Assembly: GCF_026210795.1 (NCBI RefSeq)
Contig: NC_089430.1
Span: 3,658,001 to 3,722,000, forward strand
Direction: 5' to 3'
Source: Rhizophagus irregularis
Lineage: Eukaryota; Glomeromycota; Glomeromycetes; Glomerales; Glomeraceae
DNA: 64,000 nt
Shown here: positions 2,302 to 43,570 of the stretch, in pieces
Layout of the letters: each line of letters begins with the position of its first letter
Position numbering within the stretch: the first letter of the stretch is position 1
Program-made: the position numbers and the translations under genes
Notes under the pieces: generated by a model
Told to the model about the DNA's origin: nothing
Seen by the model: only the letters and a program-made list of their open reading frames with translations
The model's database searches: none

Positions 2302-4054
2302 AGTGCTCTAAAAAAAATCCGATCTGATCTGGATCCGCAAATTTGATCCGAGTCAGATCCGGTTTGGTTTTCAAAATTCTGATCCGTAGATCAGATCAGA
2401 TTTAAAAAAAATCTGATCCGATCAATTTCAGATCAGATCAGATCATAACACAAGAAAATCTGATCCGATCTGAACAGATTCAGATCAGATTTTTTTTTAA
2501 ATAAAAAAAAAAATTTTTTTTTTAAAAACTTTTCCTGGACGAACGGACGAAGCCGGACGACCAAGATTTAAAAGAACGAACTAGGTAAGTTCGTTTCTTT
2601 TTTTTTGTTTTTTTTACTTGAGGGAACGTATTTAACGGTTCCCTTCTTTAGTAGGAAGCCTGGACGAACGAAACCTAACGACATGACCAGGATTTAAAAA
2701 AAATGAACGAACTATGGTAAGTTTGTTCCTTTTTTTTATTTTTTATTTTTTATTTTTTATTTAAGGGAACGTAATTAACGTTCCCTTTCTTTTTTTTAGG
2801 AAACCTGGACGTGAGACGAAGGAACGACCAGGATTTAAGAGAACGAACTATGGTAAATTCGTTTCTTTTATTTTTATTTTTTATTTTTTATTTAAGGAAC
2901 GTAATTAACGTTCCCTTTCTTTTTTTAGAAAACCTGGACGTGAGACAAAGGAACGACCAGGATTTAAAAAAAAGAACGAACTATGGTAAGTTCATTTCTT
3001 TTATTTTTATTTTATTTTTTTTACTTAAGGGAACGTAATTAACGTTCCCTTTCTTCTTTTTTTTTTAGGAAACCTGGACGTGAGACAAAGGAACGACCAG
3101 GATTTAAGAGAACGAACTATGGTAAGTTCATTTCTTTTATTTTTTTTTTTATTTTTTATTTAAGGGAACGTAATTAACGTTCCCTTTCTTTTTTTAGGAA
3201 ACCTGGATGTGAGACGAAGGAACGACCAGATTTAAAAAAAAGAACGAACTATGGTAAGTTCATTTCTTTTATTTTTATTTTATTTTTTTACTTAAGGGAA
3301 CGTAATTAACGTTCTCTTTCTTTTTTTTAGGAAACCTGGACGTGAGACGAAGGAACGACCAGGATTTAAGAGAACAAACTATGGTAAGTTCGTTTCTTTT
3401 ATTTTATTTTATTTTTTTACTTAAGGGAACGTAATTAACGTTCCCTTTCTTTTTTTAGGAAACCTGGACGTGAGACGAAGCTGAACGACCAGGATTCAAA
3501 AAAAAGAACGAACTATGGTAAGTTCGTTTCTTTTTTTTATTTTTTTATTTTTACTTAAGGGAACGTACTAATTAACGTTCCTTTCTTTTTTTTAGGAAAC
3601 CTGGACGTGAGACGAAACTGAACGACCAGGATTCAAAAAAAAGAACGAACTATGTTAAGTTCGTTTCTTTTTTTGTTTTTTTTTTTATTTTTACTTAAGG
3701 GAATGTAATTAACGTTCCCTTTCTTTTTTTTTTAGGAAACCTGGACGTGAGACGAAGCTGAACGACCAGGATTCAAAAAAAAAACGAACTATGGTAAGTT
3801 CGTTTCTTTTTTTTGTTTTTTTTCTTTTTACTTGAGGAACGTAATTAACGTTCCCTTCCTTTTTTTAGGATAAGGACCAGATCTGAACCAGATTCGGATC
3901 AGATTCAAATCGGATTCAAATGGATCCGAACCAGATTCGGATCAGATTGAACCAGATCTGATCGGATTCGGATCAGATCAGATCTATTAAAATAAAAATC
4001 AGATCGGATCAGATTTAAGCTGAATCCCGTCTGAACCGATCTGTTAGGAGCACT
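2302..4054. mobile_element. Non-autonomous DNA transposon inserted in the LINE (10-bp TSD, AGTGCTC ends)
   Basis: A perfect 10-bp direct repeat, ATTCTTGAAT, sits at 2292-2301 and 4055-4064. The DNA between begins AGTGCTC and ends GAGCACT. Removing it with one repeat copy restores the LINE RNase H frame (FILE then SYYNT), so the boundaries are solid. The first and last 200 bp are rich in GATC and GGATCC-like words in both orientations (GATCAGATC, GATCCGATC), typical of subterminal transposase-binding repeats. The middle is a tandem array (see 2534-3868). There is no transposase ORF. A 10-bp duplication fits a Mutator-like element, but the short TIR does not settle the superfamily. Confidence 0.85.
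2534..3868 (+). repeat. Tandem array A: ten exon/intron-like units of 128-145 bp
   Basis: Ten copies are visible. The exon-like blocks start at about 2534, 2655, 2800, 2929, 3069, 3198, 3331, 3459, 3596 and 3736, and a last AG lies at 3867-3868. Each block is about 53 bases, starts GAAACCTGGACGTGAGAC and ends GAACGAACTATG. It is followed by GTAAGTTC (GTAAATTC in one unit, TTAAGTTC in another), a T-rich stretch, an inverted repeat with arms GGGAACGT and ACGTTCCC around AATTA, then TTTCTTTTTTTAG. GAACGAAC before the donor can also pair with GTTCGTTTC after it, placing GTAAGT in a stem-loop. The blocks are 53 bases, not a multiple of three, and have no long shared frame, so they are probably not coding. 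Signals face the same way as the interrupted LINE. Confidence 0.9.
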
Positions 4055-4064
4055 ATTCTTGAAT

Positions 4065-5368
4065 CTTATTATAATACCATTCCTTCTCTTTTCCCTTCTG
4101 CATTGCGTTCTGAAATTTTTGCTTTATTGCATGGATTGGACTCTCTCCCTCAGAATTCCAAGATTACTGTCGCTACTGATTGTGCTCATTTAATTTCCCT
4201 ATGGTCTACGTATGTGGATGCTTCTTTTATTCCTAAAATGCTTAAAGAATCCAACCACCTTTTATGGTCTTCGGCACGAGCTATTATTTCATAAAAGAAC
4301 CTAGAAGTTACTTTAATCAAGGTTCCTGCTCATGCTGACGATTCTTTGAATAATCATGTTGATGATTTAGCGAAAGCTGTTCATACGGACTCGCGTCTTT
4401 CCCTTCAGTCGCCTGCACTTTTGGCTCCTTGCATTTTACAATTTAATTCTTTACCTGTGGATATGAATATCCGAAAATTCATTGGAGAAATTTTTGACGC
4501 TAAGAATCTTTTGACTTTTGCTTTATTACCAAGATTCAATCTTAATTCCTCTATTCCAGACATCAATTGGGCTTGTACTAAATTTTGTTTTAATAATAAA
4601 CAATTACAATTTTCCCATCGCAATGGCCGCTCTGAATTTTGTGCTTTCTGTATCAAGATTTTATTGGATATGCTTCTGACACTCACAACTCTTTAGAAAC
4701 GAAAGCCTCATATCTATGATCCGAGTTGGCCCTGTCCTCAGTGCAACTCCTCTCCTGAGACCTTAGACCACTTATGGACTTGTCCTTATATTCTACCTGA
4801 ATTTAGCCCTTTTAATACTTTTAAAACTCTTCTACTGGACCTTCGTACTGTTTACCTTGATAAATTTCTTTTCGCGACTCCTTTGAAACCTTTACTGGAC
4901 TCTTTTGTTGCGGAATTTACGGCTATTGATTGTTGGGAATGTGACCCTCCTTCAAATTCCTGTCTGCGATTTGCACGTGGACTTATACCGATGTCTCTTA
5001 CAAGTTTTCTTGTAACTTATTTTTCACCATCCAATATTTGGTCTATCCTCGATACACCCCTACACAACTTTCATTTTGACCTTTATGTTCAAATCTGGTT
5101 GTGCCGTTCCATTTTCTTTCACCATTGGGAATCAGCTCAAGGCATTACTAATAAGATGAAATCGTCTGCTATTGGTCCTTCTTCTATTTCTCATCCTTCC
5201 TCTCATATTGTTCCTGATTTTTTGACACCTTCCCTGGCGACAGTTTCCTTGGATTCCTGGGTTTCTTGGGTTTCCTCTTATGTAATCCGTGGGGGATCTT
5301 GGATTTCGCACTTGGATTTTTGGCGCCGCTTAACAGTTCAGCCTCTACTTAGGATTTCTTTTTGGTAA
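4065..5368 (+). pseudogene. LINE-type retrotransposon ORF, 3' part: RNase H and zinc-knuckle tail (broken)
   Basis: This continues the ORF cut at 2301, now in frame 2. RNase H residues are visible: ALRSEIFALLHGL (catalytic Glu), TVATDCAHLI (catalytic Asp) and KVPAHADDSLNNHVDDLAK (final Asp region). The C-terminal part carries a CX2C-X8-H-X4-C metal site (CPQCNSSPETLDHLWTC, near 4727-4780), usual at the end of fungal LINE ORFs. In-frame stops lie at 4292-4294 and 4694-4696. The ORF ends at 5366-5368 after FW. Confidence 0.85.
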
Positions 5369-5650
5369 CGGATTGGATCTTAGGACATGCTGGATAGTTG
5401 ACTCACACTGGCCTTCGGGTAAAGTTGAGGTATGCGTTTCTGTAATAGTTTAGTTTTTCTTTACTTAATTTTATTTTGTTTAGATTTCTTTACTTGTATG
5501 AATCGTGAAGCTAGTTCTTTTTATTTTTTATGTTTAATTTCTATATTTGTTCTTTGTAATATTGTTCGATTTGATTATTGTACTTTTCGTTTAAAATTAA
5601 ATAAAAATAAAGTCAAAAGACTGTTTGCTCATAATCACCAAATATAGACT
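5369..5650 (+). other. Probable 3' UTR/tail of the LINE
   Basis: The stretch after the LINE stop is T-rich with no homologous ORF. Near 5595-5612 it has AAATTAAATAAAAATAAAG, an A-rich run with AATAAA words suited to a LINE 3' end. The small ORF at 5432-5647 is hydrophobic only because the DNA is T-rich and is not proposed as a gene. From 5651 to 6045 no gene or clear repeat was seen. Confidence 0.45.
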
Positions 5651-6224
5651 GTCCCAAATGTGTGACTATAAAGAGAGTTGACTGTAATTCCAAACATCTA
5701 GATCCCTTCTATACCATCATATTAAATACTAAGTCTTATTTAAAAGCCACTACAACTTGTGATTATCTAGCATCAATAGTATAGTTGTAATCTCCAAGTG
5801 GTATACTTTGTAGTAACCATTTAGACATTAAGATGTACAGCTCAATACAGAATCATTCTTTAAAATGGATATTAACCATAAGGAATTACCACCTAGTATC
5901 CATCCAGTGGAAAGTCAAATCCTATTATTAAACTATCTGTTCTGTTTAGAAATATACATATAGTACATGAAAAAAATAATTATAATAATATTTTTGTTTA
6001 TTGTATAACAAATATTTATTAAACTTTCATGAAAATTTAAACATACAGTCCCCTTGATATAACGAACTCTACGTTTCAGCCGATCAGGGCTTTGTTATAA
6101 GCAACTTCATTTACACTATAACGAATTATTTGGTATAGATATATTGGTCATATAAATCATGTGACTTGTTAATCTGATTACCGATAATTTAATTACTAAT
6201 ATTTTTTTATTTTTTTTATTGTAG

Positions 6225-6592
6225 TGAACTTCCAGACTTCAAAATGATCGCCTGAAATGAGAAGTAAGTGGGAACAATTCATTTTTTTATTAATTTCGTT
6301 TAAGAATATTTACTACTAATGTTCTTTTTTTATTTTTTTTATTGTAGTAAACTTCTCAGATTTTGAAATGGACGTCTAAAATGAGAAGTAAATGGAGACA
6401 ATTCATTTTTTTTTATTAATTTTGTTTAAGAACATTTACTAATGTTCTTTTTTTATTTTTTTTTATTGTAGTAAACTTCCTGGACTTTGAAATGGACGCC
6501 TAAAACGAAAAGTAAGTGGAAAACTTATTTTTTTTTATTAATTTCGTATAACATTATTTACTAATGTTTATTTTTTTATTTTTTTATTGCAG
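6225..6592 (+). repeat. Tandem array B: three exon/intron-like units of 121-124 bp
   Basis: Exon-like blocks of 39-40 bases lie at 6225-6263, 6348-6387 and 6472-6511. Each follows TTATTGTAG, contains a GAAATGGACG-like core, and ends GAA or AAA before GTAAGTGG (GTAAATGG in the second). In the intron-like part AAGAACATT and AATGTTCTT form an inverted repeat around TACT, so a TACTAAT branch-point-like word sits in the loop, followed by a T tract and TTGTAG/TTGCAG. The final AG is at 6591-6592. The sequence is unrelated to array A but the order of parts is the same. Confidence 0.85.
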
Positions 6593-6724
6593 GGAATGCT
6601 TCCTGAAGTGTTCTACTTTTTTTTGTAGATTTTAGCTTAGGACTTGGAAATGGAGACCGATAAGTATTTTTAAAGGGTTGGAACTTGGAAGTGGATTTTT
6701 AATTTTTTTATGTAAAAATGTTTA

Positions 6725-6906
6725 GGGGAGTTACACATATCACGTAATATTCATTTTATTATAAACCTTACCCCCCCCCCCTTGTTAGATTTCATAACCA
6801 ATCAAATTATAATATTTATAAATCATATGATTTAAATAAGTGTAACGTAAAATTTTAACTACCCCCCTCCCCCCCTATAATAATTACATAATATGTGTAA
6901 GCTCCC
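6725..6906. mobile_element. PIF/Harbinger-like MITE, copy 1
   Basis: 182 bp with ends GGGGAGTTACACATAT and ATATGTGTAAGCTCCC, flanked by TTA on both sides (6722-6724, 6907-6909). A second copy with the same ends and TTA flanks lies at 17798-17975. Three-base TTA duplication is characteristic of PIF/Harbinger elements. The interior has two runs of C near 6770 and 6865 shared by both copies. Confidence 0.85.
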
Positions 6907-7343
6907 TTATTATATTTCTTTTTTTGTAGGAAATAATTTAATGTTATTTACAATAACTGACTATATAATAAATAAATAATTATTGTTTTTTAATGATATG
7001 TTAATTTAACCAGAAGTATTCTTTAGGGTCCTGTTACTACTGTGATAAATATAAATTAATAATAACTTATATCGAATCCTAATACAACTGAATTAATGTA
7101 AATTAACATAATTCTGCCTAAATATTAAATAAAATAGCCAGAATTATCAATCCTAATACGATTCTGATATGATTCTGATCTATAATTTAAATATAAAATA
7201 CGGGAATGATATTTAATGTTATATAATATTTTGTGCATCAATCTAATTATTAATAGAATTATTTAATTACATACAATCAAAAACTGCAAAATTTTTCATT
7301 ATACTGAAAAAAAAATTTGTTATAAAAAAAATCCATTATATTG

Positions 7344-7734
7344 AGAATAAAGATGTAGTATGTAATTGATAATTACTACATTGTGTTGTAATAGTAAGGG
7401 TTGCAACTGATGACTTTTATTTTAAAGTTAAAGGTAATATTACAACACTTACGATTGTTCAAAAATTTCCTTTTTGAAAAATAAAAATTACAAAAATAAG
7501 TTTTTATAGAACAAATATCATCATAAAAGAAATAATTAATATATAATAATACATATTTATATAATTGGAAATAATTACAACACTATATAATAATTACAAT
7601 ACTAGTAGTAATTATAATACTATATAATAATTATAATATTGTGTTGTAATTACAACAAAAGTGTTGTATGTATGTTGTAATAGTTGCAACCTTATAACCT
7701 TCTAAAAATAATTACATATTACATTTTTAATTGA
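7344..7734. repeat. AT-rich inverted-repeat element (full copy)
   Basis: Ends are roughly inverted: AATAAAGATGTAGTATGTAA on the left and the reverse of CATATTACATTTTTAAT on the right, with an inner pair AGGGTTGCAACT/AGTTGCAACCT. Related copies lie near 50690-50826 plus 55165-55250 (interrupted by a 4.3-kb element) and 63025-63180 (one end only). The middle contains TAATTATAATACTATATAAT-like words in both directions. No ORF. Exact boundaries are uncertain by about 10 bp. Confidence 0.6.
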
Positions 7735-8247
7735 GAAGTATTTTTATATAAGCAATTCACACACTTTACTTCGTACTATGTTATATAGTAAATAAATAGT
7801 AAACTTCGTTATATCAAGATTTTTTTTATATTTAAAATCAGTACCATACTGAAAATCTGTTATATTGTATTATTCGTTATATAGAGGTTCGCTGTAAAGA
7901 GGGGGGACTGTATATGTTTTATTATATTGCAAAAAAGTTTGAATAGGCTTAATTAATAATTTATTTTATTGCTATTATTTGCTTTAATCTTAATGGCATA
8001 CTTTTAATTAATAAATTAATAAAAATTTCACAGGCCAATTTCTTTCCACTTTTTTTCAAATTATTTTCTAGAAATATCTATGATAATTAATTTTTTTTTT
8101 ATTACTGGTTTATTAACCTGTCTTTCTACATGTTTCTTCAATATGTTTTACAATTTTCTATAGAATAGAAACCATTTTCCCAATATTATATAACATTATG
8201 CAAAAATTTCATAAACTATATTATTATAGATAAAGCATAATTGCATA

Positions 8248-8810
8248 CTTTACAGAAACCTTGAAAATATGAGCGATGTTGAATTGATACAGGTACGATA
8301 TAAATTTCATGTCATAATGGTATCAATTTCTGTGATGATATTGTTATAATGTTGATTTGATATCGTTACTTCATCACCATAATTTATCGCGAAAATATCG
8401 TGATGATATCTATTCAAAAGAATATCAAATCGGCACAGCCTTGATATCATTACGATGTTGGTAATTTCAAAAAAAGGATGCGATATTGATTTGATATCGT
8501 CACTTCATCCCACAATTTATCGCCGAGATATCGTGACAATATTTATTTAAAAAAATATCTGATTGGTATAGTCTTGATATCGTTACGATATTGGTAATTC
8601 AGGATAAAAAAAGATGCATTTACGATATTGATTTGATATCGTCACTTCATCCCACAATTTATCGCCGAGATATCGTGACAACATTTATTTAAAAAAAATA
8701 TCTGATTGGTATAGTCATGATATCGTTACGATATTGGTAATTCAGGGATAAAAAAAGATGCATTTACGATATTGATTTGATATCGTCACTTCATTGCCGC
8801 AACTCATTTG
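8248..8810. repeat. GATATC-rich element: left end plus four tandem units of about 130-150 bp
   Basis: At 8246-8247 TA precedes CTTTACAGAAACCTTGAAAA, the same terminus found at the ends of the 15.2-kb element (29120 and 44350, TA flanks). Downstream four units begin near GATTTGATATCGT at about 8350, 8478, 8630 and 8774. Each combines GATATCGTNAC words, a CATCCCACAATTTATCGCC block and TTGGTAATTCAGG. No matching right end was found nearby, so this may be a truncated copy. No ORF is present. Confidence 0.6.
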
Positions 8811-8961
8811 TGGTATCGCAACTCATCTGCAATACCGCAAATATTAAACTTTACAACTTTTATATGTATAACGTGCTGCCATATTATTAAAATAAAATTC
8901 TGATATTTTAAACGATTAAGCAATGAAGATTACATAAAAATATACTAATATGGGACTTTGA

Positions 8962-9081
8962 CTACTTCCGTATGTCGCCGCCACAGAGTTGCGGTTGCAA
9001 AGGCTTCCAAATTTTAATAAGAGAATTCTTTTTACAAATTTCTTGTTCTTGTATAGGTTTATTACGATATTGAGAAGACAT
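8962..9081 (-). pseudogene. LFLRTR-family gene remnant 1 (first-exon start only)
   Basis: The minus strand from 9081 reads MSSQYRNKPIQEQE, then SLIKIWKPLQPQ, and stops after 39 residues at 8962. The same opening (MSSQDRNKPVQE...SLIKHWEPSQ) starts the genes at 16682 and 12465, where it leads into a long Gln/Pro tract. Here the tract and all later exons are missing. The upstream motif at 9188-9211 is kept. The peptide is best read as the stump of a duplicated gene. Confidence 0.6.
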
Positions 9082-9187
9082 TTTTAAAACTTGTTTGATG
9101 ATGATTCTACAGGTTAAAATGTGAGTCAAAAAATTTTTTTTTCTTCTCATTTTTTATAAATCAATTCTTTCATTCCTTATTTTTGCA

Positions 9188-9211
9188 TTGATCTTACCAC
9201 ATCATGATCGA
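9188..9211 (-). promoter_or_regulatory. Conserved upstream block of the LFLRTR genes, copy 1
   Basis: On the plus strand the core reads CTTACCACATCATGATCG. It lies about 107 bases upstream of the start at 9081. The same core is 118 bases upstream of the start at 12465 and 79 bases upstream of the start at 16682, although the DNA between has diverged. A shared promoter element is plausible; plain recent duplication is the alternative. Confidence 0.4.
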
Positions 9212-9308
9212 GTATGATTAGTATGGTGGTCAATTTCGAAAGAAAAAATATATTTTTTTTGATATACTTTGATGTATTTTCCATATGATTTTAGATATTG
9301 AGAATTTG

Positions 9309-9508
9309 GTAAGAGAAGAGTTTTTTTAATTACTACTTTAACGAAATGTACTAACACTTGTTCTTTTTTTTAGACAGGTTCAAAGCATGGGATTTCAACT
9401 GCTGGAGCTCAGGGGTGTAGATTTCGGTGGATATTTTATAACATTTTTTTTTAAAATCTTTTTTTTTTTAATGTACTATTACTAACAGTTCGTTTCTTTT
9501 TTTTTAAG
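9309..9508 (+). other. Isolated splice-like blocks
   Basis: GGTAAGAGAAG at 9308-9318, GTACTAACACTTG near 9347 and a T tract ending in AG at 9372-9373 look like one intron. A second TACTAAC word followed by a T tract and AAG (to 9508) lies downstream. No ORF surrounds them. They may be a degenerate relative of arrays A-C or remains of an intron-bearing gene. From about 9520 to 10500 no gene or repeat was recognised. Confidence 0.35.
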
Positions 9509-10520
9509 CGGGTTTTCATGATTGCTTTGACGGAATTTTTCTATTTTGTAAATTATACTAGTAGTTTATGTATTATTATTTAGCCGTATAATAAAATAAT
9601 TTATTGGCATTTTAAAATATATTAATCATGTTCTGTCAATGCAATCTTTACAAAATTGTGAAAATTATCATAAAATGGTTTTAAATACATTGTCAGGATG
9701 ACATATTTTATGATGTTCTGGTAAGCATCGGAAATGGGGTTCTAACGTGGTTTTCAAAATGATTTTTTATTATGTAAAATGTCTTTACAACCATATTAAA
9801 ATTCGAATTTTAAGTACATTTATGATATCATAAAAGTATCATACGATATCTTGAAAAAATTGCCTTGTCCAGTAAAAGTAGTCTCATTTTATTTACGAAT
9901 GTATATTTTAATATACAGTATTTGAAATGTATTAGAGACATTATTCTATTCAATACATTTACTAAGTTTTATCGACATGGTTAAAAATCGGAACGACTTT
10001 AATAATAATTCGTGACGATTTATCGGTAAATTGATCCACGATCGGTAGACGATTATTTGCATGATATGTTTACTATTCGGATACAATTCAATACATTCCA
10101 GCAAAGAATAAATTATATATTAAGCAAAATTATTGATATGAACTTTATTTATGATTAAAAGTGTTAATAATAAAAGTATTAATAATGTAAATGTTAAGTA
10201 TAATTACTAAATTATAGCTCCTCTATGCTAAATATTTACTATAAACTATTGATCGAATAAAAAAAATCAAAGCCAACAACCAAATGCTATAACATTATAA
10301 GACCAACAAGTTTCCACGAATATTTATTTTCTATCCCTTTTGTTCTTAGAGTATTAAAAATCTTCCAGAACCTTAAAGTATTATCGTCACCACCAGCTCC
10401 AGCTACAATGTCCTCTCCATTTGGAGAAATATAAAAATAAAGGACGTGATAAAAATGTAAAATGATATATAATAAAAATATATTATATAAAATTTATAAT
10501 AACGCTTCTCACTAGCCTCC

Positions 10521-12465: not shown

Positions 12466-13145
12466 TTTAATGATAGTTAAAAAATGCAAGTCAAAAAAAA
12501 AACAAATATCTAAATATAAAAAAAAAAAAGAAATAATTAATTGAATAAAAAAAAAAATTTTTTTTATCCCCTTTTTTTTGCGTTGATCTTACCACATCAT
12601 GATCGAAAAAAATTAATCTTTTTCTTGCATCGTAATTATATCTATGATTAATATGGTTAATTACGAAAAGAAAAAAAATTCTTTTTGCCATTGATCTTAT
12701 TACATCATATGATACAGATTTTTTTAAGGAAAAAAAAATATGATTAATATAATGATGGATATTGTGATTAAATCATGGCCAAGTAAAATTAATATTTTTC
12801 TCACATTGTTACGATTAATTTCGAAAATAAGTTTCTTTTTTACCATTGATCTCAATAGATTTTCTAAGGAAAAAAATTTGATTAATATAATGACGGACAT
12901 TGTGATTATCGAGTAAAAATTAATCTTTTTTTCAATTTTTTTCTTTTTTTAAAAATTCTATATCGTGGTTATACCTATTACCGAAAAAAACTTTTTCTGC
13001 AAAAAAAGTTGTTTGCATTGATATCATAACACTACGAGTTATCTTTTCCTTGAACCTTCTCAAACATTTTAAGTCGTATAATTAATAATTAACCTCTCCT
13101 ATAAACAGAGAGCAACTTACTTTAATATAAACACGAATAGAGAGC
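12466..13145 (-). promoter_or_regulatory. Upstream region of LFLRTR gene 2, duplicated at 16683-17345
   Basis: Blocks in the same order occur upstream of the gene at 16682: the CTTACCACATCATGATCG core (12586-12603), TTGCCATTGATCT...TTTTTTTAAG, AATATAATGATGGATATTGTG, TATCGTGGTTATA, and CCTTGAACCYTCTCAA with an AGAGAGC...CAACTTAC end near 13120. The duplication unit therefore extended about 700 bases beyond the start codon. No ORF in this stretch is convincing. Confidence 0.55.
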
Positions 13146-13274
13146 GAGTGATTTGAACTAAGCCAAAGTTAGAAACAAGATAGTTTCGGTATCTTCAGGC
13201 GGTATGGATGAAGACAATTCACGTATTAGCCCTTGTTCTACAATTTGATTTTTATCAAACTCGCTCTACATTGA

Positions 13275-13651
13275 TTATTTCAGTTCTGTCTCAACCGATC
13301 TCCGAGGAAGAAGCAAAGTAGAAATCAAAGAATGGGAATCATGTATGGAAAAGGAACATCCTAAAAAGAAAGAGGCAACGGTTCTGCGAGTTAGAAATAT
13401 CTGAGTAGATGATTCATGCTGAAGCTTCTCTTCTCTCATTTCATCACTGATGCTTTTTCTTATGCGCCTTATCCAAGAAAACATCCATTTCCCTTTCCTT
13501 CGATGACTTGGTATTCTTGAGCTGGTCTATGGAGTCGGATACATCTACAGCTTATATCTCTGGTGTTACGATCAGTGAAAAAATCCAGGTAACACCGGAA
13601 ACGATACGGAATCACAATCACATGCCCTCTGAATATCATCTTGAATGCCAA
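13275..13651 (-). pseudogene. Degenerate coding fragment, family uncertain
   Basis: On the minus strand overlapping frames give KSSKEREMDVFLDKAHKKK followed, after a shift, by MREEKLQHESSTQ. The first part looks like a charged segment seen in large Rhizophagus families from memory; no search was done. Stops and shifts occur every 50-60 codons. It lies between two LFLRTR loci in the same orientation. I would not call it a gene. Confidence 0.2.
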
Positions 13652-13744
13652 ATTGATATGGTGATAATGTTAAATTCATATTGCAGAAAATATAAAAAAA
13701 AATTGTTCAATATGGAAGTCAGTAATTTGATGGATCAGTGATGT

Positions 13745-29144: not shown

Positions 29145-29720
29145 ATAATATCTTAACGATATCATTATGAGATCGTAACGATTTCATGACGATTTTCTAA
29201 AATGATAACATATTGATATAGTTACGACTCTCTTAACGATAACGTAATAATACTGTGACGATACAGTGAATGATAACAAAACGATATCATCCAGATATTT
29301 ATTGATACTGAAATAGCATCATTTTAGTATCAGCACGATATCATCGCAGCAATGATACAGTGACAATACAGTGAATGATAGCAAAACGATATTATCCTAA
29401 CACTAAGATAGCATCATTTTGGTATCAGCACAATATCATCGCAGCAATAATACAGTGACAATACGGTGAATGATAGCAAAACGATATTATCCCGACACTA
29501 AGATAGCATCATTTTGGTATCAGCACGATATCGTCGCAGTATTATTACATTATCATAACTGTATCAGCATGTTATCATTTAAAAATCGGCATAAAACCAA
29601 TATGTTCCCATATTGATGTCGTTGAGATGTATAGAAAACAACTAATGATTATTCAGAATATCAATCATGATATCTTAACGATATTTAAATGTTATCAGCT
29701 TGGTATTATGACAATAATTA
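29145..29720. repeat. Left subterminal GATATC repeats of the 15.2-kb element
   Basis: Includes about three tandem units of 97 bp with ACAGTGAATGATAGCAAAAC, ATAGCATCATTTTGGTATCA and CGATATCATCGCAGCA (near 29260, 29360, 29457). Short palindromic GATATC-like words continue to 29720. No coding potential. Confidence 0.8.
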
Positions 29721-31500: not shown

Positions 31501-31863
31501 CCTTTATAGTTGTTGTCGTTAGGTTTTTTAATATTGTGAAAAAAAACAGTAGTTAATCTGAAAAATAACTTACTTCAAACTTCAAAGGTATCAAATTTCA
31601 AAGAAACTGGTAATTATTTAACTTTAAATAAATATTTAAAAATAAAAAGTTTGGCGTAGAGGGATTTTATCAGTAAAACAAAAAAACAAAAAATTTAAGG
31701 TTTTTATTGGTTAATCAGATCCAGTCACGTGAAATAGCATTGCTAAATCACGAATATGAAGATCGATCGCTAAATGCATTATTTTAAATAACACTAAATG
31801 ATACCACCATTAATTTCATCCTACTAATTACAAATAAATATAATAAAAGTCCTTATTATAAAG

Positions 31864-34800: not shown

Positions 34801-35447
34801 ACAAGATCTTCATACGCATTTGTTGAGATATCATGTTTATGAATCCAACAAAATAAAGCAGCAGTAGTAAAATCTTGGAAATATGGTGCAAAATTGCCAT
34901 TAAAATTTGGTAAATTGCTTTCATCTAGCGCTCTATCAATGAATATTTTTTCCTCTGATGAGGGATTAGCAATATTTTCTCCGCTTTCTGAAGATGTTGT
35001 TGTATCACTTTGTGATGATGCATAAACATGGTTTTCACCTTCTAGAGATGTTCTTCCTGTATCGCTATTATAATCATCATATTCTTCGTTTTCTGAAGAT
35101 GCTGTATAATTATCATCATTTTCTGACGATGTTGCATAATCATCATTTCCTGCATTCCCATAATCATCATATTCTTCGTTTTCTGAAGATGCTGTATAAT
35201 TATCACTATTTTCTGATGATGTTGCATAAATATCATCATTTCCTGCATCCTCATCATCGTCATATTCTTCATTTTCTAATTGCATATCAACATTATAATT
35301 ATTTCGTTGTTCATTACTATTATCAAAATTGTCACTACCATTATCATCATTTGGTGGTACTATTGTACCTTGTGGTTGCCTTCTAAAATTATTTCGAATA
35401 CGAAAAGGTAATGTAGTAGTATCCCTTCGTGCTCTATTTCGCAACAT
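31864..35447 (-). pseudogene. Tnp2-like transposase gene, copy 2 (full length, one stop)
   Basis: Minus-strand exons: 35447-34466, 34381-32964, 32899-32545, 32405-31864, total 3297 bases (1099 codons). The layout equals copy 1: basic start MLRNRARRDTTTLPFRIRN, an acidic SSENEEYDD tract, FGQEQL at the end of exon 1, a BAH-like segment (CGDFIYYYDNDNN), LFLDLYYDDFGTYRNVYHSL, GGVYIQFGNMPSHQRKLL, and a C-terminal part with IIDWFEEIKRVHHVLKCPL. A TGA at 33297-33299 replaces the Trp of copy 1 (KAWKNFEKP). It lacks the intron present at 28360-28439 in copy 1. It lies inside the element that splits copy 1, in reverse orientation. ATG 35456 is an alternative start three codons upstream. Confidence 0.75.
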
Positions 35448-36515
35448 TGTTAACAATCAAAATCAAAATTCTAAATTTTTATGAATATACAAAAATTAAT
35501 GCCTTATTCGTATATTTGCTTATAATGCAATAAATATTATTATACTGACCTATACGGTGGCTATAGTGACTGAAATATACGTATGTTGACTGAGCTAAGC
35601 TGAAGCTGAATCTCTGAATCGCCAAGTAAAAAATACACCAATCTTTTTTATATTGATATCTTGAAATTCAACAAAATCCCGGTTTCACCTTAATATGTCC
35701 TTTTCTTGATAAGGATAATCAAAATACACAAACATATATGAGTCAAACACAACGGATGCATTTTTCTTGATAGAACGTGACACAATTATTTTAGTTGTAT
35801 TACTTTCGCATCGATCAAATCACAGCACGTAAATAAAATAAAAATATTACAATAAAACAATAAAATAAATATAATAATGTTTTTTAATATATGTAAATTT
35901 ATTAGTGAAGTTGGAAAAATAAATTTAAAGGGGAATAAAAGAATAAAAAGGAGACGATAAAGTTGGAAATATAAAATAAAAAAAAAGTCAAGCCAACACC
36001 GATTATCGGTGTGGTATGATACCAATGATTGTTACTTAACAATGTTAATGTATTTCGTACAGAATTGCATATAATTTATTTTAATTGTAAAACTATTGTA
36101 AAAATTGAAGTCTGCATAATTAAATAGTAATCGCGAATTAATCATCGGTAGATCAGTATTCTATATAAGGTTAAAATTTATATTGTTCTTCCTAGCCAGA
36201 AATCAATCGGTAAATTAAACTAAATAATAGTTATCAATCGGTATTATTAAATAAATCAGGTGACCTTGTAGTAATTACATCTACTTGCGTCACATAATCT
36301 ACAACATGCAGATTTTATCAAATATCACTTTAACAAAATTTATCATGCATCATCGTGTATTATTTGTTATTAAGAAAAAAGAATTCTCAATGATGATATT
36401 ACTTTATATATCATCACATCATACATCAATAATATTCTGTCACAACAATAATATCACACCAATAATTTTTATTACAATATATTGCAACTTCACTGCATTT
36501 TATTACATTTTTTTA

Positions 36516-38284
36516 TTAAAATTTCAGTGAGCTAGCAAAATTCTTTCCACTACGGGACGGAATTTCTAAATTTTCCGTATTTTTATCTAATCTTTTGATT
36601 TGATTATAGAAAGCCTTAGTGTTGGTTTCGTTCCTTTCCTCCCACGCAATACTAAAACATTCTCTCGAAAATTCAATTAGTTTGTCCATTGATATTTCTG
36701 AAATTTCAGATATATCAACCGCAGAAAAATAGCGGTTAAGAATTCTCTTAATAGCAACTTCACATGAAATAAAATTGGTAATCTCAACTTGAGTTTCTGT
36801 TTCTGTAATAGTTCCTCCTCTTTATAAAAAAAAGGAAAGAAATTCATATTGACATTAGTTATAAATACAATTATAAATGCAAATAATATTATATTGATTA
36901 CCTTTCTAATTTTTTTTGAAATTCTCAGACTAATTCTTCAATTGACACCCTAAGCTGATAACGATAGTCTGAAAAGGATTTTCTACATCGATCTATAATT
37001 GATTTTGCTGTGCTACTATAAGTTTCAAATTCGGGAAAAATTTTTCGTACTAGTTTTTCAAAAACGAGACCAGGTGGGAACCGAGATCTTAAAAAAAGAC
37101 ATTTTATTTCTTCATCGATTAACCTATATTTTTCCTAAATAATAATAAAAGTTTTTGTGAAATATTTATGAAAATTATAGTCACAACAACTGAATGTATC
37201 GATCGAAATACAATAAACGCTTACATTGGATGCGGTTGATGGCGCGTGTGCTGGCTGCTGCACTGCTAGTGCTAATTGTGACGTACTATCCTTCATATTT
37301 AACATTTGAGTGGCTAGCTGCAGGATATCCGGATGATCAACTAGCCAATTGCAGATTTGCAATTGGTTTGTCATCGATTCGAATTGGGGGGGAACTTGAC
37401 GTCATATTTATTTTATTAATAATAAATGAAGATATTTATGTATAACAAAATATTGTATTAAACAAGATTTTACCAGAATAGTTATCGTCTTCTTTTTCTC
37501 TATAATCTTGATCATCTTCTCTTTCATTTCTTCTCCTCTTAATTCTTTCTCTATTCTCTATTTCTCGTCCTTCTTGTTCTTGATGACGACAGAGGGGATT
37601 CTGACGTTCTCGTTCTTGTTCTTGACGACCACGGTGAGGATTCTGACGTTCTCGTTCTTGTTCTTGACGACCACGGTGAGGATTCTGACATTCTCGTTCT
37701 TGTTCTTGACGATCACGGTGGGGATTCTGACGTTCTCGTACTTCTTGTTCTTGACGATCACGGTGGGGATTCTGACGTTCTCGTACTTCTTGTTCTTGAC
37801 GACCATGGTGAGGATTCTGCTGATCTTTGGAAAGATCTTATCATTATTTATTATTGTTTTATTATTGTGTGTTATTATCGTTTGTTTTTAATAGTTTTTA
37901 AGTAAAAATTAATATCTTCAATTGTATATAATAAAATGCAAAATTCATTAAATTCATAAATTAAGATTCTATGACTGACCTCCGAGAAAATCTATTTCGT
38001 CATCCTCATTGCTTATTTCATCGTTAATTCCTCCATCCTCATCGTTAAATTCATCATTAACTTCTTCGTCTGTTCCCGATACAGTTTTTGCTCGACCTTG
38101 ATTAGTTTTCGCAGCTTTTGATTGACTTTGAGCAATTCCTGCAGCTTTAATTCGACTTGCCGCGGACTTTGACTTTTTAGTAGGTTCTGTTATATAGATA
38201 GCATTAAAACCGCTATTCAAAAATCAAAAAAAAATCAAAAAAAAAGGAACCAAAAAATATTCAAATATTACTTGATCGAACCAT
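36516..38284 (-). pseudogene. LFLRTR-family gene 6, six exons, one internal stop; paralog of the gene at 20238
   Basis: Minus-strand exons: 38284-38272, 38186-37980, 37824-37474, 37394-37225, 37134-36902, 36819-36516; total 1278 bases (426 codons). Phases equal those of the gene at 20238-21794 throughout. Start MVRS then KPTKKSKSAASRIKAAG, an acidic stretch, repeats of RQEQERERQNPHRG (42-45-base units at 37590-37815), MTNQLQICNWLVDHPDILQL, then KYRLIDEEIKCLFLRSRFPP, and finally REC...SRSGKNFASSLKF. A single TGA at 36925-36927 interrupts exon 5 where the paralog has Lys. With only one stop, the gene may have been inactivated recently, or the base may be an error. It sits inside the 15.2-kb element. 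From 35448 to 36515 nothing was recognised. Confidence 0.6.
37580..37820 (-). repeat. 42-45-bp minisatellite coding RQEQERERQNPHRG
   Basis: Five to six units in exon 3 of LFLRTR gene 6; two units carry an extra Val codon (QEQEVRER). The corresponding exon of the paralog at 21205-21399 holds a different charged repeat (ERREK), so this exon is a hotspot for repeat expansion. Confidence 0.8.
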
Positions 38285-39649
38285 GATTTAAGAATACCAA
38301 TCAGATCAGAAAAATCTTAACCCATGGGAAAATAAAGTGTCTCCTGCTCTATTGTATTTATATCTGACTCTAGCAGTATAAGAACCTGTTTATTGGTAAT
38401 CATGCCTTGTCAAACCATTTTCTGAATGCCACTTTTCTGAATATACTTCTCCCTAAATCAATTATCTAAAATGCCAATTTTCCAAATAGGATCTTTCCCT
38501 GAAATATTCACGAATCTGTATTTCCTGAATTCCAAATTCCTGATGCTCAATTTCCCAAATCCCGAAACCTAATATATCCTTATACCCAATATCCCGAATG
38601 GGCAATTTCCCGAAATATAAAATAATATACTGTAATCTCTTTTAATTCATATGATTTATTATAAACTGTGTAATAGATAATGGATGAGAATTATTGTGAT
38701 AAATACTTTGTTTCCATAAATCGGAAATTGGCTGATACAGATGTACATATATCGTAAACAGATCAACGGATCGATCTGTTTATATACTGCAGTCACGATA
38801 ACAAAATTTTCCGGTTATGCACTTAACTGCTGTAATCATTGACCTATCGCATATTATTTAAAGTAATGTAAGAATATTAAATAATTGGCCAAAGATATGC
38901 ACATATAAGATCAAATGATAAAAGAATGAAGTCAAAAAAAAAAAAAAATTTTTTTAAAAAAAAAAAATTTGAAAAAGGAGTGCAGTGCAAGGAGTACAAA
39001 AAAAAAATTTAAGGGGCCGAAATGCAAAGCGGATAACCCAAATCAACCCGGTAACTTACGTGATCAAAGTATGTATCCTGGGAAATTTTCATAAGATAAA
39101 AAGGAAAAAAATTTGTGTATTATTAATTTGGAACATAATCATTGTGCTATAAACCCGATTTAGGTAGTAACTAATATGTATTTTATTTATATTTAAAATT
39201 TTTCTTCGTTTAAGAGCAATGATATAAAAAACAACATAAAAAACATATTTTATATACAATATACAGTGTATTCGACTTTTTAGTATACTGTAACGTTTCT
39301 CCAAATAAAAGAATTGGTATTGATATTGACCCAAAAAGAAAAGATGTAGTTAAAATTGACCGTAGCCCAATTGTAGAACAATATCCAAAATATTGTGTGA
39401 ACGCTAAAACGAATTTGCGTATTAAATATATTTTTTACAACTCCAACGGATGATCATGCATAATTAGATAAGCCATGTAACGGTTGTTACAAATAAATTT
39501 ACAAAATGTTTATATTATACTGTACGTGAATTTTATGATCTTTATATATATGTAAGAAAAATATTTAAAGAATTTATTATATAATCTTAATTTTATTTAT
39601 AGATAGACAATAATTAATTAATTGATTAGGTTCGTCAACGAATTATATA

Positions 39650-39897
39650 TACTTTAGTAACAAACCTATTTCTGTTTTCTTGTCTAATACGCGTTGCTAA
39701 CTCCTGCACGCTATAAATTTTTTCCTAACGAATATCACATCTCCCTTTTCAAAATCTTTCTCAATATTCCTATCTGAATGAAGGCTTTGATTTTCAAATA
39801 ATTATTTTTTTGGATCATTAGCGTCTAATATTGACACAGCCGTAACCTCTTACTCTTGAGTGAGCCTTTCGCTAGAACCATGTAGAAACTTGGACAT
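39650..39897 (-). pseudogene. Small gene remnant with TATA-like box
   Basis: On the minus strand from 39897: MSKFLHGSSERLTQE, stop, EVTAVSILDANDPKK, stop, then after a shift YSVQELATRIRQENRNRFVTK. About 115 bases upstream the minus strand has GGTATAAAAAG. Hydrophilic, family not recognised. Two stops and a shift in 250 bases suggest a dead exon. Elsewhere from 38290 to 40640 no gene is visible; the stretch holds A/T homopolymer runs (near 38935-38970). Confidence 0.3.
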
Positions 39898-40654
39898 TTT
39901 TTGATAAATAGTATTTGTGGAGGTTCGGGTGCAATTGGTGTAAAAAGTTTTTTTGTTAAAATATTTTTTTACATGAAATTAATGAAAAAATCTAAAGGAT
40001 GATGACTTTTTATACCTTTTTTTATAATGTTAGAAATCTTCTTTTTTTCAAATTCATTCAAAAATTCAAAATTCGTTAAATTCGATCGTTGAAAAAAATT
40101 GATAATTTAATAATTGAAAAGAAGGAGCCTCAAATTTTCATTTTCCCTATGGAAAAAACATCATGAGGCATGAGACTTCGTTATTTCATTATCATTCTCA
40201 CGAGGCAATCACTTGCCATTATATTAAACGTCCGTATAAGGAACTGTAACATTTTTTTTCGTGAAATGATTTTTTTAATTAATTAATAAATCCAAAAAAA
40301 ATTTTTTTTAAGGAGGTTAAAAAAAAAAAAATCTTGGATTGAAACGTAATGATATAAGTTACAGGTCAGCAGCATCAGTGTAAATATATAGTTATATATT
40401 TATTATTAAAACATGACCTCTCCTTCAAGGAAAAAGAATCATACAATATATTTTAGATATTTTAACATGAATATTTGTAATTGCATACTTCAATCCCATA
40501 ATTCACAGTTTTTTATAAATTATTAAATTTTTTATTGTAGTTACAAATCGTTACCATCCTAGCAATAGGCATTGTACAATTGGTAGATCTAGCTCTGCTC
40601 TACCATTTCGTCTAACGATGGACATTGTATAACTGGTATCATTTTTTTTTGGGT

Positions 40655-40735
40655 TGTCATTAGTACCGACGTCCTCGTCGTGCAACCTGGGTACTAGTAA
40701 TATGCTAGTAGCAAACGGGTACTACTAAAATTGAA
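40655..40735 (+). repeat. Dispersed GC-richer repeat, copy 1
   Basis: About 80 bp beginning GGGTTGTCATTAGTACCGAC, with GACGTCC, CGTGCAACCTGGGTACTA and AGTAGCAAACGGGTAC. A diverged copy occurs on the opposite strand at 51873-51957. No ORF and no clear promoter boxes. Confidence 0.5.
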
Positions 40736-41316
40736 AAGAATGAAGCTGAAGCAAACAATTAAACTTTTTTTTATTGTTATTACACGTGAATCTTTTTTAC
40801 TAGTTATGAATTTTTTTTATCCGCTAATAAAAAACTTTTTTCACATGGTTTTTTCACGTTTTTTTTATATGTATACATTTTTTAAAATATTGATGAATTT
40901 TTTTATGTGATAATTATGTAAACAAGTCATTTTTTTTATAAAATAAATATTTCCTAAAATGATAATATTCCTCGAGTTTGATCGTTCGATTAATGATCTC
41001 AAGGCTATCTCTTTTTTTTGTATATAAGAACAAAAAAATGATTATTTTTTTAGTACTCCAACGTAGCGGAAGAAAATTTTTTAGGTATGAATTTATAAAA
41101 TTTTTTCTTTATATAAATTGACTTCAATAATTTAATTTATTTTTATTGATAATTTATTTAATAGAAAAATCAAAGCAGTGGTTTTAATTTTTTTTTTTTA
41201 TTAATTCAACGCGCAGTCAGCAGCAGAAAAAATTTTTTTAGGTACGAATTTAATAATTGACAATTCATATAGAGAGACAATTCATAAGCTACTATTAACA
41301 ATTAATTGATTAAAGC

Positions 41317-41547
41317 ATGTCGCCACCTGGATCATCAAGAAAAAGGACGAGAAAGACCTATTTCCAGCGTCATACTCATCGTCAAAAAGACAAAGAAGAA
41401 AGAAGATGGAAAGATAAATCCTATGAATTGGAAAAGAAATATGATAATCTTTTGGAAAATTCTGCATTTTTTCTTATTTGGGGATTTTTTATTATTGTAG
41501 TTTTTATTTTTATTTTTATTGCTATTTTAATTAATAAATACTATTAG
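41317..41547 (+). CDS. Small basic protein with one C-terminal membrane segment (76 aa)
   Basis: ATG 41317, stop at 41547. Residues 1-45 are charged and basic (RKRTRKTYFQRHTHRQKDKE). Residues 52-72 are purely hydrophobic (FFLIWGFFIIVVFIFIFIAI) and are followed by LINKYY. That is the layout of a tail-anchored protein: cytoplasmic basic domain, one helix, few residues beyond. An in-frame upstream ATG is absent; a different frame from 41306 gives nothing coherent. The N-terminus recalls the ORF at 18972. It lies inside the 15.2-kb element. The hydrophobic end could be an accident of T-rich DNA. Confidence 0.35.
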   Translation: MSPPGSSRKRTRKTYFQRHTHRQKDKEERRWKDKSYELEKKYDNLLENSAFFLIWGFFIIVVFIFIFIAILINKYY

Positions 41548-41889
41548 TATAAATACTTCTAATTTCATTTGCTGATTTTGATCACTTTTGACTATATTCT
41601 CAAACCTGACTTTTTAAAAATGATTGAACCCAACTGTACCACCACAGATTTGATGGTGATGCAGGAGACTAAAATCAAAAATTTGACCATGATCTACATT
41701 AGATATTGGTCGAATAATGCACTAATTAAACGTCACGCGTATTTAAAGTTTAAAAAAGGATCATCTTTTTTAAACTCCCCTTTCCCCTTCCACTTTCCCT
41801 CCTTTCGTTCGTCCTCCCTTTCCCTTTCGTCCTTCCCTTCCCCTTTCGTTCTCCCCTTTTCTCACACCTTCTTCCGCCTCTTTTTCTTG

Positions 41890-43570
41890 GAAGTAATGTA
41901 AGTTTCGTTTCGAAACTTACATATCTTTTTTTTAATTTTTTTTTTAATCTTTTTAATTTTAATTAAGAAACGAACTAACGTTTCTTTTCGTTATTTTTTT
42001 TATAGGACGTGTAGGAGGACGCCGGCTTGTTCACGAAACCGGACTTTAAGGTAAAAAACGGGGAAAGGGGAAGGAGGAAGGGGTTTTGGAACCTAAAATT
42101 CTTAAGAATCTTGGTTTTATTTATTTATTTTTTTTATTATTTTGGAACGGTTTACTAACCGTTCCTTTCTTTTTTTTATAGGCTCGGTGTATTTCCGACG
42201 AATAGATGAACCAAGATTCGTAAGTACGAGTACGAATCTTGGTTTATTTATTTTTTTTTTTAATATTATGGAACGGTTACTAATAACCGTTCCTTTCTTT
42301 TTTTAGGTTTCGGTGGAGCTTCCGAGTTCCGAAGAACAGAAAAACTAAGATTCGTAAGTAAGTACGAATCTTGGTTTTGTCTTTTTTAAATATTATTAAC
42401 GGTTACTAATAACCGTTTTTTTCTTTATTTTTTTAGGTTCGGGTGTCTTCCGAAGAACGGAAAAAGAGGACCAAGATTCGTAAGTACGAATCTTGGTTTT
42501 GTTTATTTTTTTTTAATATTATGAACGGTTACTAACCGTTCTTTCTTTTTTTTAGGTTCGGGTGGGCTTCTGAAGAACGGAAAACCCAAAGATTCGTAAG
42601 TACGAATCTTTAATTTTTTTTATTTATTATTACGAACGGTTTACTAACCGTTTTTGTATATTTTTTTATAGGTTCGGGTGGGCTTCCGAAGAACGAAAAC
42701 CCAAAGATTCGTAAGTACGAATCTTTACTTTGTTTTTATTTTTTATTATTACGAATGGTTTACTAACCATTCTTTCTTTTTTTTTATAGGTTTGTGGGCT
42801 TCCGAGGATCGGAAAAAGGAGAACTAAGGTTCGTTACGAACCTTGGATTTTTTTTTATTATTATGAACGGTTTCTAACTGTTCTTTTTCTTTTATTTTTA
42901 TAGGTTCGGTTGGCTTCCGAAGATCGAAGGAACCAAGATTCGTAAGTACGAGTACGAATCTTGATTTTTGTTTTTTTTTATTATTTTGGAACGGTTTACT
43001 AACCGTTCCTTTCTTTTTTTTAATAATTTCTTACGTTTGTAGGACGGTTCCTTGGAATTTTCTTCAGCTTTGGTAAGTTTCTTTTGAAAATTTATTTCTG
43101 GGAAAGGGAGGTGCAGCTGGTGTTTTTTCATAGTAATTAGATAAAATTTTTTTTTTACACCATAGCCACCATGTACGCTAGGAAAACGGAATCCTTCGTG
43201 TTGCATAACTCGCAAATGTTACGTGTAGGACGTGTAGATGTCTTGGAATTGGTAAGTTTTATTTTTTTATTATTAATTTTGATTTTTTTTTATTAATTTT
43301 TTTATTAATTTTTTTTATCTTTTAATTTGTAAAAATCGATAGTTTCACACTTCCCGGATCGAATTAGTAAGTTTTTTCACTTAAAACTTTTTTTAAAATT
43401 TTTTTTTATTATTATTTAATTTTTTTATTATCTTTTTTTGTAGTTTCGGCTTCCTTATCCCGGATCAGTAAGTTTCAAAACGGTTCGTTTTGAAACTTTT
43501 TTTTTAAGTTTAATTTTTCCGAATTTTTATTTCAGATCGGACTTGGACTTTATTTTTTTTCTTTAGGTAT
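41890..43570 (+). repeat. Tandem array C: about a dozen exon/intron-like units
   Basis: Exon-like blocks lie at 42006-42050, 42182-42219, 42307-42353, 42437-42479, 42556-42595, 42672-42710, about 42790-42832, 42904-42941, 43043-43071, 43229-43251, 43343-43366 and 43444-43467. Most have a core GGCTTCCGAAGAACGGAAAA and end GATTC before GTAAGTACGAATC. AAGATTCGTA and TACGAATCTT form a 10-bp inverted repeat that encloses the donor. In the intron-like part GGAACGGTT and AACCGTTCC enclose TACTAAC or TTACTAA, then TTTCTTTTTTTATAG. At the right edge the last donor lies inside a larger stem, AAGTTTCAAAACG and CGTTTTGAAACTT. At 41898 the first donor also sits in an inverted repeat (GTAAGTTTCG/CGAAACTTAC). 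Not coding. Confidence 0.88.

What the first reader, a model, noticed from the sequence alone, without database searches (positions are those of the whole stretch)
2534..43570. Three unrelated tandem arrays share one design: exon-like block, donor in a hairpin, branch point in a hairpin, T tract, AG
Seen directly: arrays A (2534-3868), B (6225-6592) and C (41890-43570) do not share primary sequence, yet each repeats every 120-145 bp with the same parts in the same order. A 25-55-base block is followed by GTAAGT lying within or next to an inverted repeat; then comes a second inverted repeat whose loop or arm carries TTAAC, TACTAAT or TACTAAC, a T tract, and AG. These are the spliceosomal signals in correct order and spacing, repeated 10, 3 and 12 times. 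Known: TACTAAC-like branch sites and short introns are normal in fungi; introner elements create introns with built-in splice sites. Inference: this looks like a convergent or ancestral class of splice-competent tandem repeat, in which each unit is removable from a transcript, perhaps letting the DNA expand inside transcribed regions with little cost, or making multi-exon or circular RNAs. I know of no described element class with paired hairpins over both signals.
Basis: partly seen in the sequence, partly recalled or inferred. Interest (0 to 1): 0.88.

Follow-up and report, generated by a model that had tools for sequence, protein, structure and literature searches.

The report
Transposons carrying tandem intron-like arrays
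In what looks like a mycorrhizal fungus genome, several kinds of jumping DNA carry chains of short, non-coding, intron-like units whose splicing signals often sit in small hairpins; if these chains are really spliced, it would be an unusual use of splicing by transposons, and existing RNA data could test it quickly.

Summary
Arrays A, B and C contain ordered donor, branch site, T tract and AG units; six other tandem arrays that I checked contain none. A is hAT-like (8-bp target duplication identical in 8 of 10 copies; 40 empty-site matches). C is CACTA-like (3-bp duplication in 3 of 3 relatives). B is probably Tc1/mariner-like. Exon-like blocks keep no reading frame. Donor and branch columns are more conserved than base-matched columns (p = 0.007, 0.001, 0.047). 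Branch hairpins are common in all three families; donor hairpins are strong in C, present in 40% of A, nearly absent in B. The design extends beyond A-C: two directional hairpin patterns give 232 and 345 strand hits against 2 and 3 control hits. Covariation within families is absent in A and B and rests on few changes in C. No RNA reads were available and no spliced retrocopy was found, so splicing is inferred, not shown.

The parts
2301..4055 (+). Element A: hAT-like transposon without a long frame (ends TAGTGCTC..GAGCACTA) flanked by 8-bp duplication TTCTTGAA at 2293-2300 and 4056-4063
   Evidence: duplication identical in 8 of 10 copies with both ends; empty site; longest stop-to-stop frame inside it 87 aa
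2585..3868 (+). Array A: ten donor-to-acceptor units between first donor and last acceptor; blocks mostly 53-59 nt; branch hairpin AAGGGAACGT[AATTA]ACGTTCCCTT
2301..2530 (+). Left terminal and subterminal region of A (GATCTGATCC-type repeats), shared by dispersed copies
6046..7910 (+). Element B: probable Tc1/mariner-like element, CAGTCCCC..GGGGACTG with TA on both sides; right end seen in the window copy only
   Evidence: left part and body shared with L014-L017; longest stop-to-stop frame 68 aa
6225..6592 (+). Array B: three 39-40-nt blocks with GTAAGT/GTAAAT donors and branch hairpin AAGAACATT[TACT]AATGTTCTT, T tract, AG
41702..43958 (+). Element C: CACTA-like element; left end not found in this copy (similarity to L008 begins at 41702), right end CAACTAGTG at 43950-43958
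   Evidence: relatives L010, L011, L012 have CACTAGT ends and 3-bp duplications; longest stop-to-stop frames overlapping it 112 and 106 aa
41780..41890 (+). CT-rich tract just upstream of the first intron-like unit of C (promoter-like by resemblance only)
   Evidence: similar tract at the start of L011
41898..42005 (+). First intron-like unit of C: ATGTAAGTTTCG[TTT]CGAAACTTACAT donor hairpin, AAGAAACG[AACTAA]CGTTTCTT branch hairpin
   Evidence: z -3.93
42106..43042 (+). Array C: about eight units, donor hairpin AAGATTCGT[AAGT]ACGAATCTT type, branch hairpin GAACGGTT[TACT]AACCGTTC type; two units with broken donors
43073..43535 (+). Three to four further, non-tandem intron-like units downstream of array C, one with donor hairpin AAGTTTCAAAACG[GTT]CGTTTTGAAACTT

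Best explanation
SHOWN: the three arrays are the interiors of dispersed DNA transposons with different ends (hAT-like A, CACTA-like C, probably Tc1/mariner-like B) and no long reading frame in the window copies. Each interior is a one-direction chain of short blocks that keep no frame, separated by units with consensus-like donor, branch site, T tract and AG. Donor and branch columns are on average more conserved than base-matched columns. Local palindromes sit over the branch site and, in C and several other families, over the donor. INFERRED: the units are genuine U2-type introns of a non-coding transcript made from the element, removed one by one. The self-contained hairpins would help each near-identical unit fold on its own, leaving the T tract and AG free, so that neighbouring splice sites pair rather than distant ones. 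The most likely benefit is that a heavily spliced transcript is stable and treated like a normal host transcript, which keeps the element expressed and accessible; extra introns are gained by unequal exchange. The last step is the least certain.
For: Dispersed copies: first-look candidate places 138 (A), 359 (C), 116 (B). Ends and target duplications; 40 of 40 scored places (of 144 candidates) match the joined flanks of A across the junction without the insert. Seven further A copies carry 3-10 units each; six of the seven show both end regions, L024 lacks the right one. Longest stop-to-stop frames inside the elements are 87 (A), 68 (B) and 106-112 aa (C). Block lengths that are multiples of three: 9 of 54 in A, 1 of 14 in B, 21 of 54 in C. 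Donor plus branch columns diverge 2.6, 0.8 and 5.0% against 9.0, 9.4 and 12.7% in other columns outside T tracts, stratified p 0.0066, 0.0011, 0.047. Ordered signals on one strand only and absent from six other arrays. Rule-called introns in parts of seven further loci: stem of 7 or more at the donor in 16 of 47 and at the branch in 26 of 47, against 0 and 0 of 22 elsewhere in the window; with stems of 6 or more 19 and 30 of 47 against 3 and 2 of 22 (loci chosen because a hairpin had been noticed). Directional patterns 232 strand hits against 2 and 345 against 3. RNA folds better than shuffles, z -2.95 to -6.38 in 7 of 8 units that I picked. Precedent that intron number raises mRNA cumulatively in a fungus: PMC3744415 (abstract and passages).
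Against: No transcript data. No exon-exon junction of A, B or C in the genome at up to 3 mismatches, one pattern each. Within families, double Watson-Crick changes do not exceed chance in A (12, expected 13.1) or B (1, expected 0.8); in C 61 against 12.0, but two changes supply 52 of the 61. No clear G-U asymmetry in stems (C>T 85, 16, 97 against G>A 88, 11, 98 in A, B, C), so no sign of RNA-level selection in standing copies. B donors lack short hairpins (2 of 81). One of eight folds is ordinary and does not form the branch hairpin (L058, z -0.76). My first, stricter donor rule gave stems in only 3 of 47 units of the extra chains. GTAAGT palindromes are only 366 against 272 control genome-wide, and GTAAGT..TACTAAC at 80-110 spacing is not enriched (170 against 258; the spacing was too long for these units). 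Some palindromic places are counted on both strands. Units are related by descent, so the p-values are optimistic; the acceptor AG was not part of that test.
Confidence: 0.55

Rival explanations
1. The palindromes act in DNA: they are binding sites for transposase or host proteins, or products of replication slippage and template switching, and the splice-like words are passengers in AT-rich repeats.
For: Internal and subterminal repeats are common in such transposons (recalled). No clear wobble asymmetry, and no excess covariation in A and B. T runs are abundant in this window.
Against: Order and strand of donor, branch, T tract and AG are kept in all three families and absent from six other arrays; donor and branch columns are more conserved than base-matched columns; A has separate subterminal repeats outside the array; branch hairpins followed by T on one strand give 232 strand hits against 2.
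Confidence: 0.22
2. Units are spliced but the hairpins slow splicing, so that stalled spliceosomes mark the transcripts for RNA interference; the arrays would then be a liability or a host-side marker rather than a benefit.
For: Stalled-spliceosome RNAi is described in Cryptococcus (recalled; related titles in the listing only). Hairpins cover signals.
Against: Signals are near consensus and conserved, not decayed; a pure liability would hardly be kept in several families (inference). No small-RNA data here.
Confidence: 0.1
3. The arrays are captured or decayed coding genes whose exons encode peptide repeats, such as SP7-like effector genes.
For: A blocks of the window each have a stop-free frame.
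Against: Block lengths are multiples of three in only 9 of 54 (A), 1 of 14 (B) and 21 of 54 (C); the three B blocks of the window have stops in all frames; SP7-like genes are described with one conserved intron before the repeats (PMC11333574 section 6).
Confidence: 0.05
4. These are introners: transposons that become introns of the genes they enter.
For: Transposon ends plus splice signals, as in introners (PMC9860276 passages).
Against: In A the first donor is 284 bp from the left end and the last acceptor 187 bp from the right end, so the element would not be removed whole as one intron. Whether any copy lies in a host coding exon was not tested.
Confidence: 0.08

Closest known systems
Introner elements (DNA-transposon-derived introns)
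   Same: Mobile DNA carrying its own splice signals; many have terminal inverted repeats or target duplications, and some form hairpins (PMC9860276, PMC7789003 passages)
   Different: Here each element holds a chain of several to a dozen intron-like units with non-coding blocks between them; in A the splice sites are far from the element ends; hairpins cover single signals rather than joining the two intron ends
Symmetrical stwintrons of Hypoxylaceae
   Same: Fungal introns with inverted repeats that proliferated (PMC8469720 passages)
   Different: Those are single intervening sequences in genes, with terminal inverted repeats and no flanking duplications; here local hairpins, tandem arrays and transposon ends
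Non-autonomous hAT, Tc1/mariner and CACTA elements with internal tandem repeats (recalled)
   Same: Ends, target duplications, dispersed copies without a long frame
   Different: The internal repeat is an ordered, one-strand splice-signal unit; the main texts of two R. irregularis transposon papers hold neither 'intron' nor 'splice' (PMC11075540) or 'splic' (PMC8647823) as word starts
SP7-like effector genes
   Same: Tandem repeats in the same likely species
   Different: Coding repeats with one conserved intron before them

Membership tests
hAT-like transposon (element A) | 8-bp target-site duplication | tested here: met
   12 copies given, both ends found in 10: identical 8 of 8 in 8, 7 of 8 in one, 0 of 8 in one
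hAT-like transposon (element A) | terminal inverted repeats | tested here: met
   TAGTGCTC..GAGCACTA
hAT-like transposon (element A) | mobilised by a hAT transposase | not tested
   no transposase model was run; other superfamilies with 8-bp duplications are not excluded
CACTA-like transposon (element C) | CACTA ends and 3-bp duplication | tested here: met
   L010 GGC, L011 GAT, L012 AAA, 3 of 3 relatives examined; the window copy itself shows only the right end
Tc1/mariner-like transposon (element B) | TA duplication and inverted ends | tested here: inconclusive
   seen in the window copy by reading; right end not compared with other copies
Introner element | element inserted in a gene and spliced out as an intron | not testable with these tools
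   no RNA reads; element ends and splice sites do not coincide in A
Introner element | mobile element with splice signals | tested here: met
U2-type spliceosomal intron | GT donor, branch site, T tract, AG in order on one strand | tested here: met
U2-type spliceosomal intron | removed from RNA | not testable with these tools
   no reads; no spliced retrocopy
SP7-like effector gene | coding repeats kept in frame | tested here: not met
   block lengths
Known RNA family | match to an Rfam model at its gathering score | tested here: not met
   0 matches in window, L011, L054, L058, L060

The most novel reading that the evidence does not exclude
A widespread class of transposon-borne, non-coding intron chains with a shared structural code (hairpin over the branch site, often a second over the donor) that has spread across several transposon superfamilies in one fungus, where splicing itself is the selfish trait: introns as cargo that lets silent-looking elements be transcribed, tolerated and multiplied.
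Probability: 0.35. Interest if true: 0.9.

Novelty: new variant of a known kind. Interest (0 to 1): 0.72.

Why it matters
If the chains are spliced, intron number is a property that transposons amplify for themselves, linking intron gain, transposon tolerance and RNA surveillance in an organism rich in transposons. It would give many natural, graded arrays (3 to 10 units in the A copies read) for asking what hairpins on splice signals do, and it would warn genome annotators that some apparent multi-exon genes here may be transposon interiors. Existing RNA data for the likely species could decide the main point.

Tried and rejected
SP7-like coding exons: array A blocks read open in one frame, but block lengths keep no frame. 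Genome-wide GTAAGT..TACTAAC at 80-110 bases: not enriched (170 against 258 control); the spacing was too long for these units. GTAAGT..ACTTAC palindromes: 366 against 272, a weak excess, used mainly to pick loci. Spliced retrocopies: none for one junction pattern each of A, C and B. RNA-level selection by wobble asymmetry: not seen. Rfam: no match. Autonomous partner: not found and hardly sought; frames of 100 aa or more were listed for L019 (none) and L020 (two, both outside the A element there), not for L021-L024 or L027; in the chain parts of L059 and L060 no stop-to-stop frame of 90 aa lies on the chain strand except the CT-rich tract just before the L060 chain; no transposase model was run. 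One search, a first search for terminal repeats by self-comparison, gave mostly low-complexity matches and was cut; only its A result was used. A first hairpin count for the extra chains required the stem to cover the GT itself and gave donor stems in 3 of 47; I then counted stems covering donor bases +3 to +6, because many stems begin just after GT, which gave 16 of 47; the control was 0 of 22 both times. Of the seven loci L052-L058 I left out L052 (no chain seen) and L055 (C-like units) from those counts and added parts of L060 and L011. First counts of B donors were limited by my acceptor rule (5 sites) and redone (81 sites). Zero-length C blocks are an artefact, because C blocks begin with GT; recounted. 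The patterns were written after seeing such hairpins, so they measure abundance of those sequence types, not an unbiased rate; palindromic places are counted on both strands, and I did not check that each hit belongs to an intron-like unit. Boundaries of family D (L060-L062) stayed unclear. Literature: judged by titles and starts of abstracts, the listings show nothing on intron arrays in Rhizophagus transposons (open-licence PMC only); two searches returned no paper.
Full report
WHERE IT IS. The window is G000:C2:3658001-3722000 in a genome of 146.7 Mb in 32 contigs.

THE OBSERVATION. The three arrays exist at the stated places. Donor-like and acceptor-like sites alternate. A strict ordered motif is found 8, 1 and 5 times on the + strand of A, B and C (B and C contain units with variant donors) and never on the other strand, nor on either strand of six other tandem arrays of the window that I chose with periods of about 89-190. 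Perfect stems of 7 or more cover GTAAGT in 11 of 22 sites in the three elements, 1 of 26 sites outside and 52 of 2117 permuted hexamers outside. The hairpin claim is uneven between families. For stems of 7 or more, C has 231 of 261 donors and 186 of 232 branch sites, A has 38 of 94 and 53 of 104; B has 2 of 81 donors and 72 of 93 branch sites.

WHAT IT IS. Each array has many dispersed relatives: 138, 359 and 116 first-look candidates for A, C and B, of which 40 were scored each time. Comparing copies gives ends. Element A runs from 2301 to 4055 with ends TAGTGCTC..GAGCACTA. Twelve copies were given to and both ends were found in ten; the 8-bp flanking duplication is identical in 8 of 10, 7 of 8 letters in one and unlike in one. 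A query made of its two flanks without the insert matches across the junction at 40 of 40 scored places, out of 144 candidates, at 84-94% identity, so A jumped into an older repeat. C relatives have CACTAGT ends and 3-bp duplications in 3 of 3 cases examined; in the window copy only the right end was found. B is flanked by TA and has CAGTCCCC ends in the window; its right end was not checked in other copies. Seven further A copies carry 3 to 10 units each; six show both end regions, L024 lacks the right one, and in L019 the chain is interrupted by about 2.8 kb. The longest stop-to-stop frames are 87 aa within A, 68 aa within B, and 106 and 112 aa overlapping C, so these copies look non-autonomous; no transposase search was made.

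NOT CODING. Block lengths that are multiples of three number 9 of 54 in A (lengths mostly 53-59, outliers 34 to 69), 1 of 14 in B (39-40) and 21 of 54 in C (36-57). The three B blocks of the window have stops in all frames; A blocks of the window do have one or two stop-free frames each, which their lengths do not preserve from block to block. The extra chains likewise have mixed lengths.

CONSERVATION. Profiles of 95 A units (12 loci), 92 full-length B units (17 loci) and 247 C units (18 loci) were built. Donor and branch columns diverge 2.6, 0.8 and 5.0%, other columns outside T tracts 9.0, 9.4 and 12.7%; permutation within base and CpG classes gives p = 0.0066, 0.0011 and 0.047. Units are related, so these p-values are optimistic, and the acceptor AG was not tested. 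The C value is weakened by one column that varies by 49%, which I read as two alternative spacings of the branch word.

STRUCTURE. Seven of eight introns that I picked fold better than dinucleotide shuffles (z -2.95 to -6.38; the eighth, from L058, -0.76 and without its branch hairpin). In the five folds that include the acceptor, the last bases of the T tract and the AG are unpaired. By inspection the branch word sits at the tip of its hairpin in much the same way in different sequences (TACT, ACTA, CT or AATTA in the loop, AC or AAC at the stem). Against RNA-level selection: within families, double Watson-Crick changes are at chance in A (12 against 13.1) and B (1 against 0.8), and the C excess (61 against 12.0) comes mostly from two changes (52 of 61); transitions that would leave G-U pairs are not clearly favoured.

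HOW WIDE. Seven loci were picked from pattern hits (L052-L058). Five of them (L053, L054, L056, L057, L058) and L060 show more chains with other hairpin sequences, for example GTAAGTTTCGCAAC[GC]GTTGCGAAACTTAC and AAGAAACGTT[TT]AACGTTTCTT in L054; L055 holds C-like hairpins and L052 showed no chain. With a fixed rule for calling introns, in the five, part of L060 and the first part of L011, donor stems of 7 or more occur in 16 of 47 and branch stems in 26 of 47 units, both in 10, against 0 and 0 of 22 elsewhere in the window; my first, stricter donor rule gave 3 of 47. The loci were chosen because hairpins were noticed, so the rates are biased upward. Two directional patterns are far above their reversed controls: branch hairpin plus T run 113+119 against 0+2, donor hairpin TTCGAAG|GTA..CTTCGAA 183+162 against 1+2. 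These are strand hits, and palindromic places count twice; both patterns were written after seeing examples. In clusters that I picked from the list, 11 of 16 neighbouring hits are 117-127 bp apart and three are 239-240 bp apart. Of 28 comparisons of single units, C's first intron, D, E and F show clear relations (z 4.7 to 8.5 for D-E, D-F, D-C1, E-F and E-C1; F-C1 only 1.7), C to D 4.1 and A to C1 3.8; links among the A, B and C arrays are weak. Shared descent for part of the class is therefore likely, convergence for the rest is open.

MECHANISM. The parts and their conservation fit a one-direction, non-coding transcript with many removable introns. CT-rich tracts just before the first intron of C and of L011 would suit a promoter, by resemblance only. 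The local hairpins could keep each of many near-identical units folding on itself. The benefit I think most likely is a stable, host-like transcript; in Cryptococcus, removing introns lowers mRNA of most tested genes and the effect of intron number is cumulative (PMC3744415, abstract and passages). None of this has been shown in RNA: no reads were available, and no spliced retrocopy was found.

KNOWN KINDS. Introners (PMC9860276), hairpin introners of Amoebophrya (PMC7789003) and symmetrical stwintrons (PMC8469720) were read in passages only. They share mobility or inverted repeats with introns, but in those passages are single introns in genes. The main texts of two R. irregularis transposon papers hold no word starting with intron, nor with splice (PMC11075540) or splic (PMC8647823). 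Within the open-licence library, the listings, judged by titles and starts of abstracts, show nothing that describes such chains; most subscription papers are not held.

Noticed in passing
window 6725-6906: A stretch of about 180 bp inside element B is absent from the other B copies L014, L015 and L017 and has inverted ends by reading (GGGGAGTTACACATAT..ATATGTGTAAGCTCCC): probably a small nested element.
   Followed up: partly
window ~2000-2300 and 4064-5400: Element A sits in an older dispersed repeat (40 scored empty-site matches of 144 candidates) that reads like a retroelement 3' region; its family was not tested.
   Followed up: partly
window 8352-8807, 29313-29539, 44000-44265, 47133-47559: Arrays and stretches rich in GATATCG or CGATAT words recur and may be one further repeat family; the three that were arrays show no ordered splice motif.
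   Followed up: partly
L011 340-880: A CACTA-like relative of C holds a long purine-rich tandem repeat (about AACGAAAGGGGAAGCTAAA) as one large block between intron-like units.
   Followed up: no
L058 1-720: A separate tandem array with about 112-bp period, GTAAGTTTG donors and AAGAAACGT[ACTA]ACGTTTCTT branch hairpins, next to a chain of diverged units.
   Followed up: partly
window 51004-51647: A 50-bp tandem array of about 13 copies, 92% alike; no splice-like design noticed, not tested.
   Followed up: no
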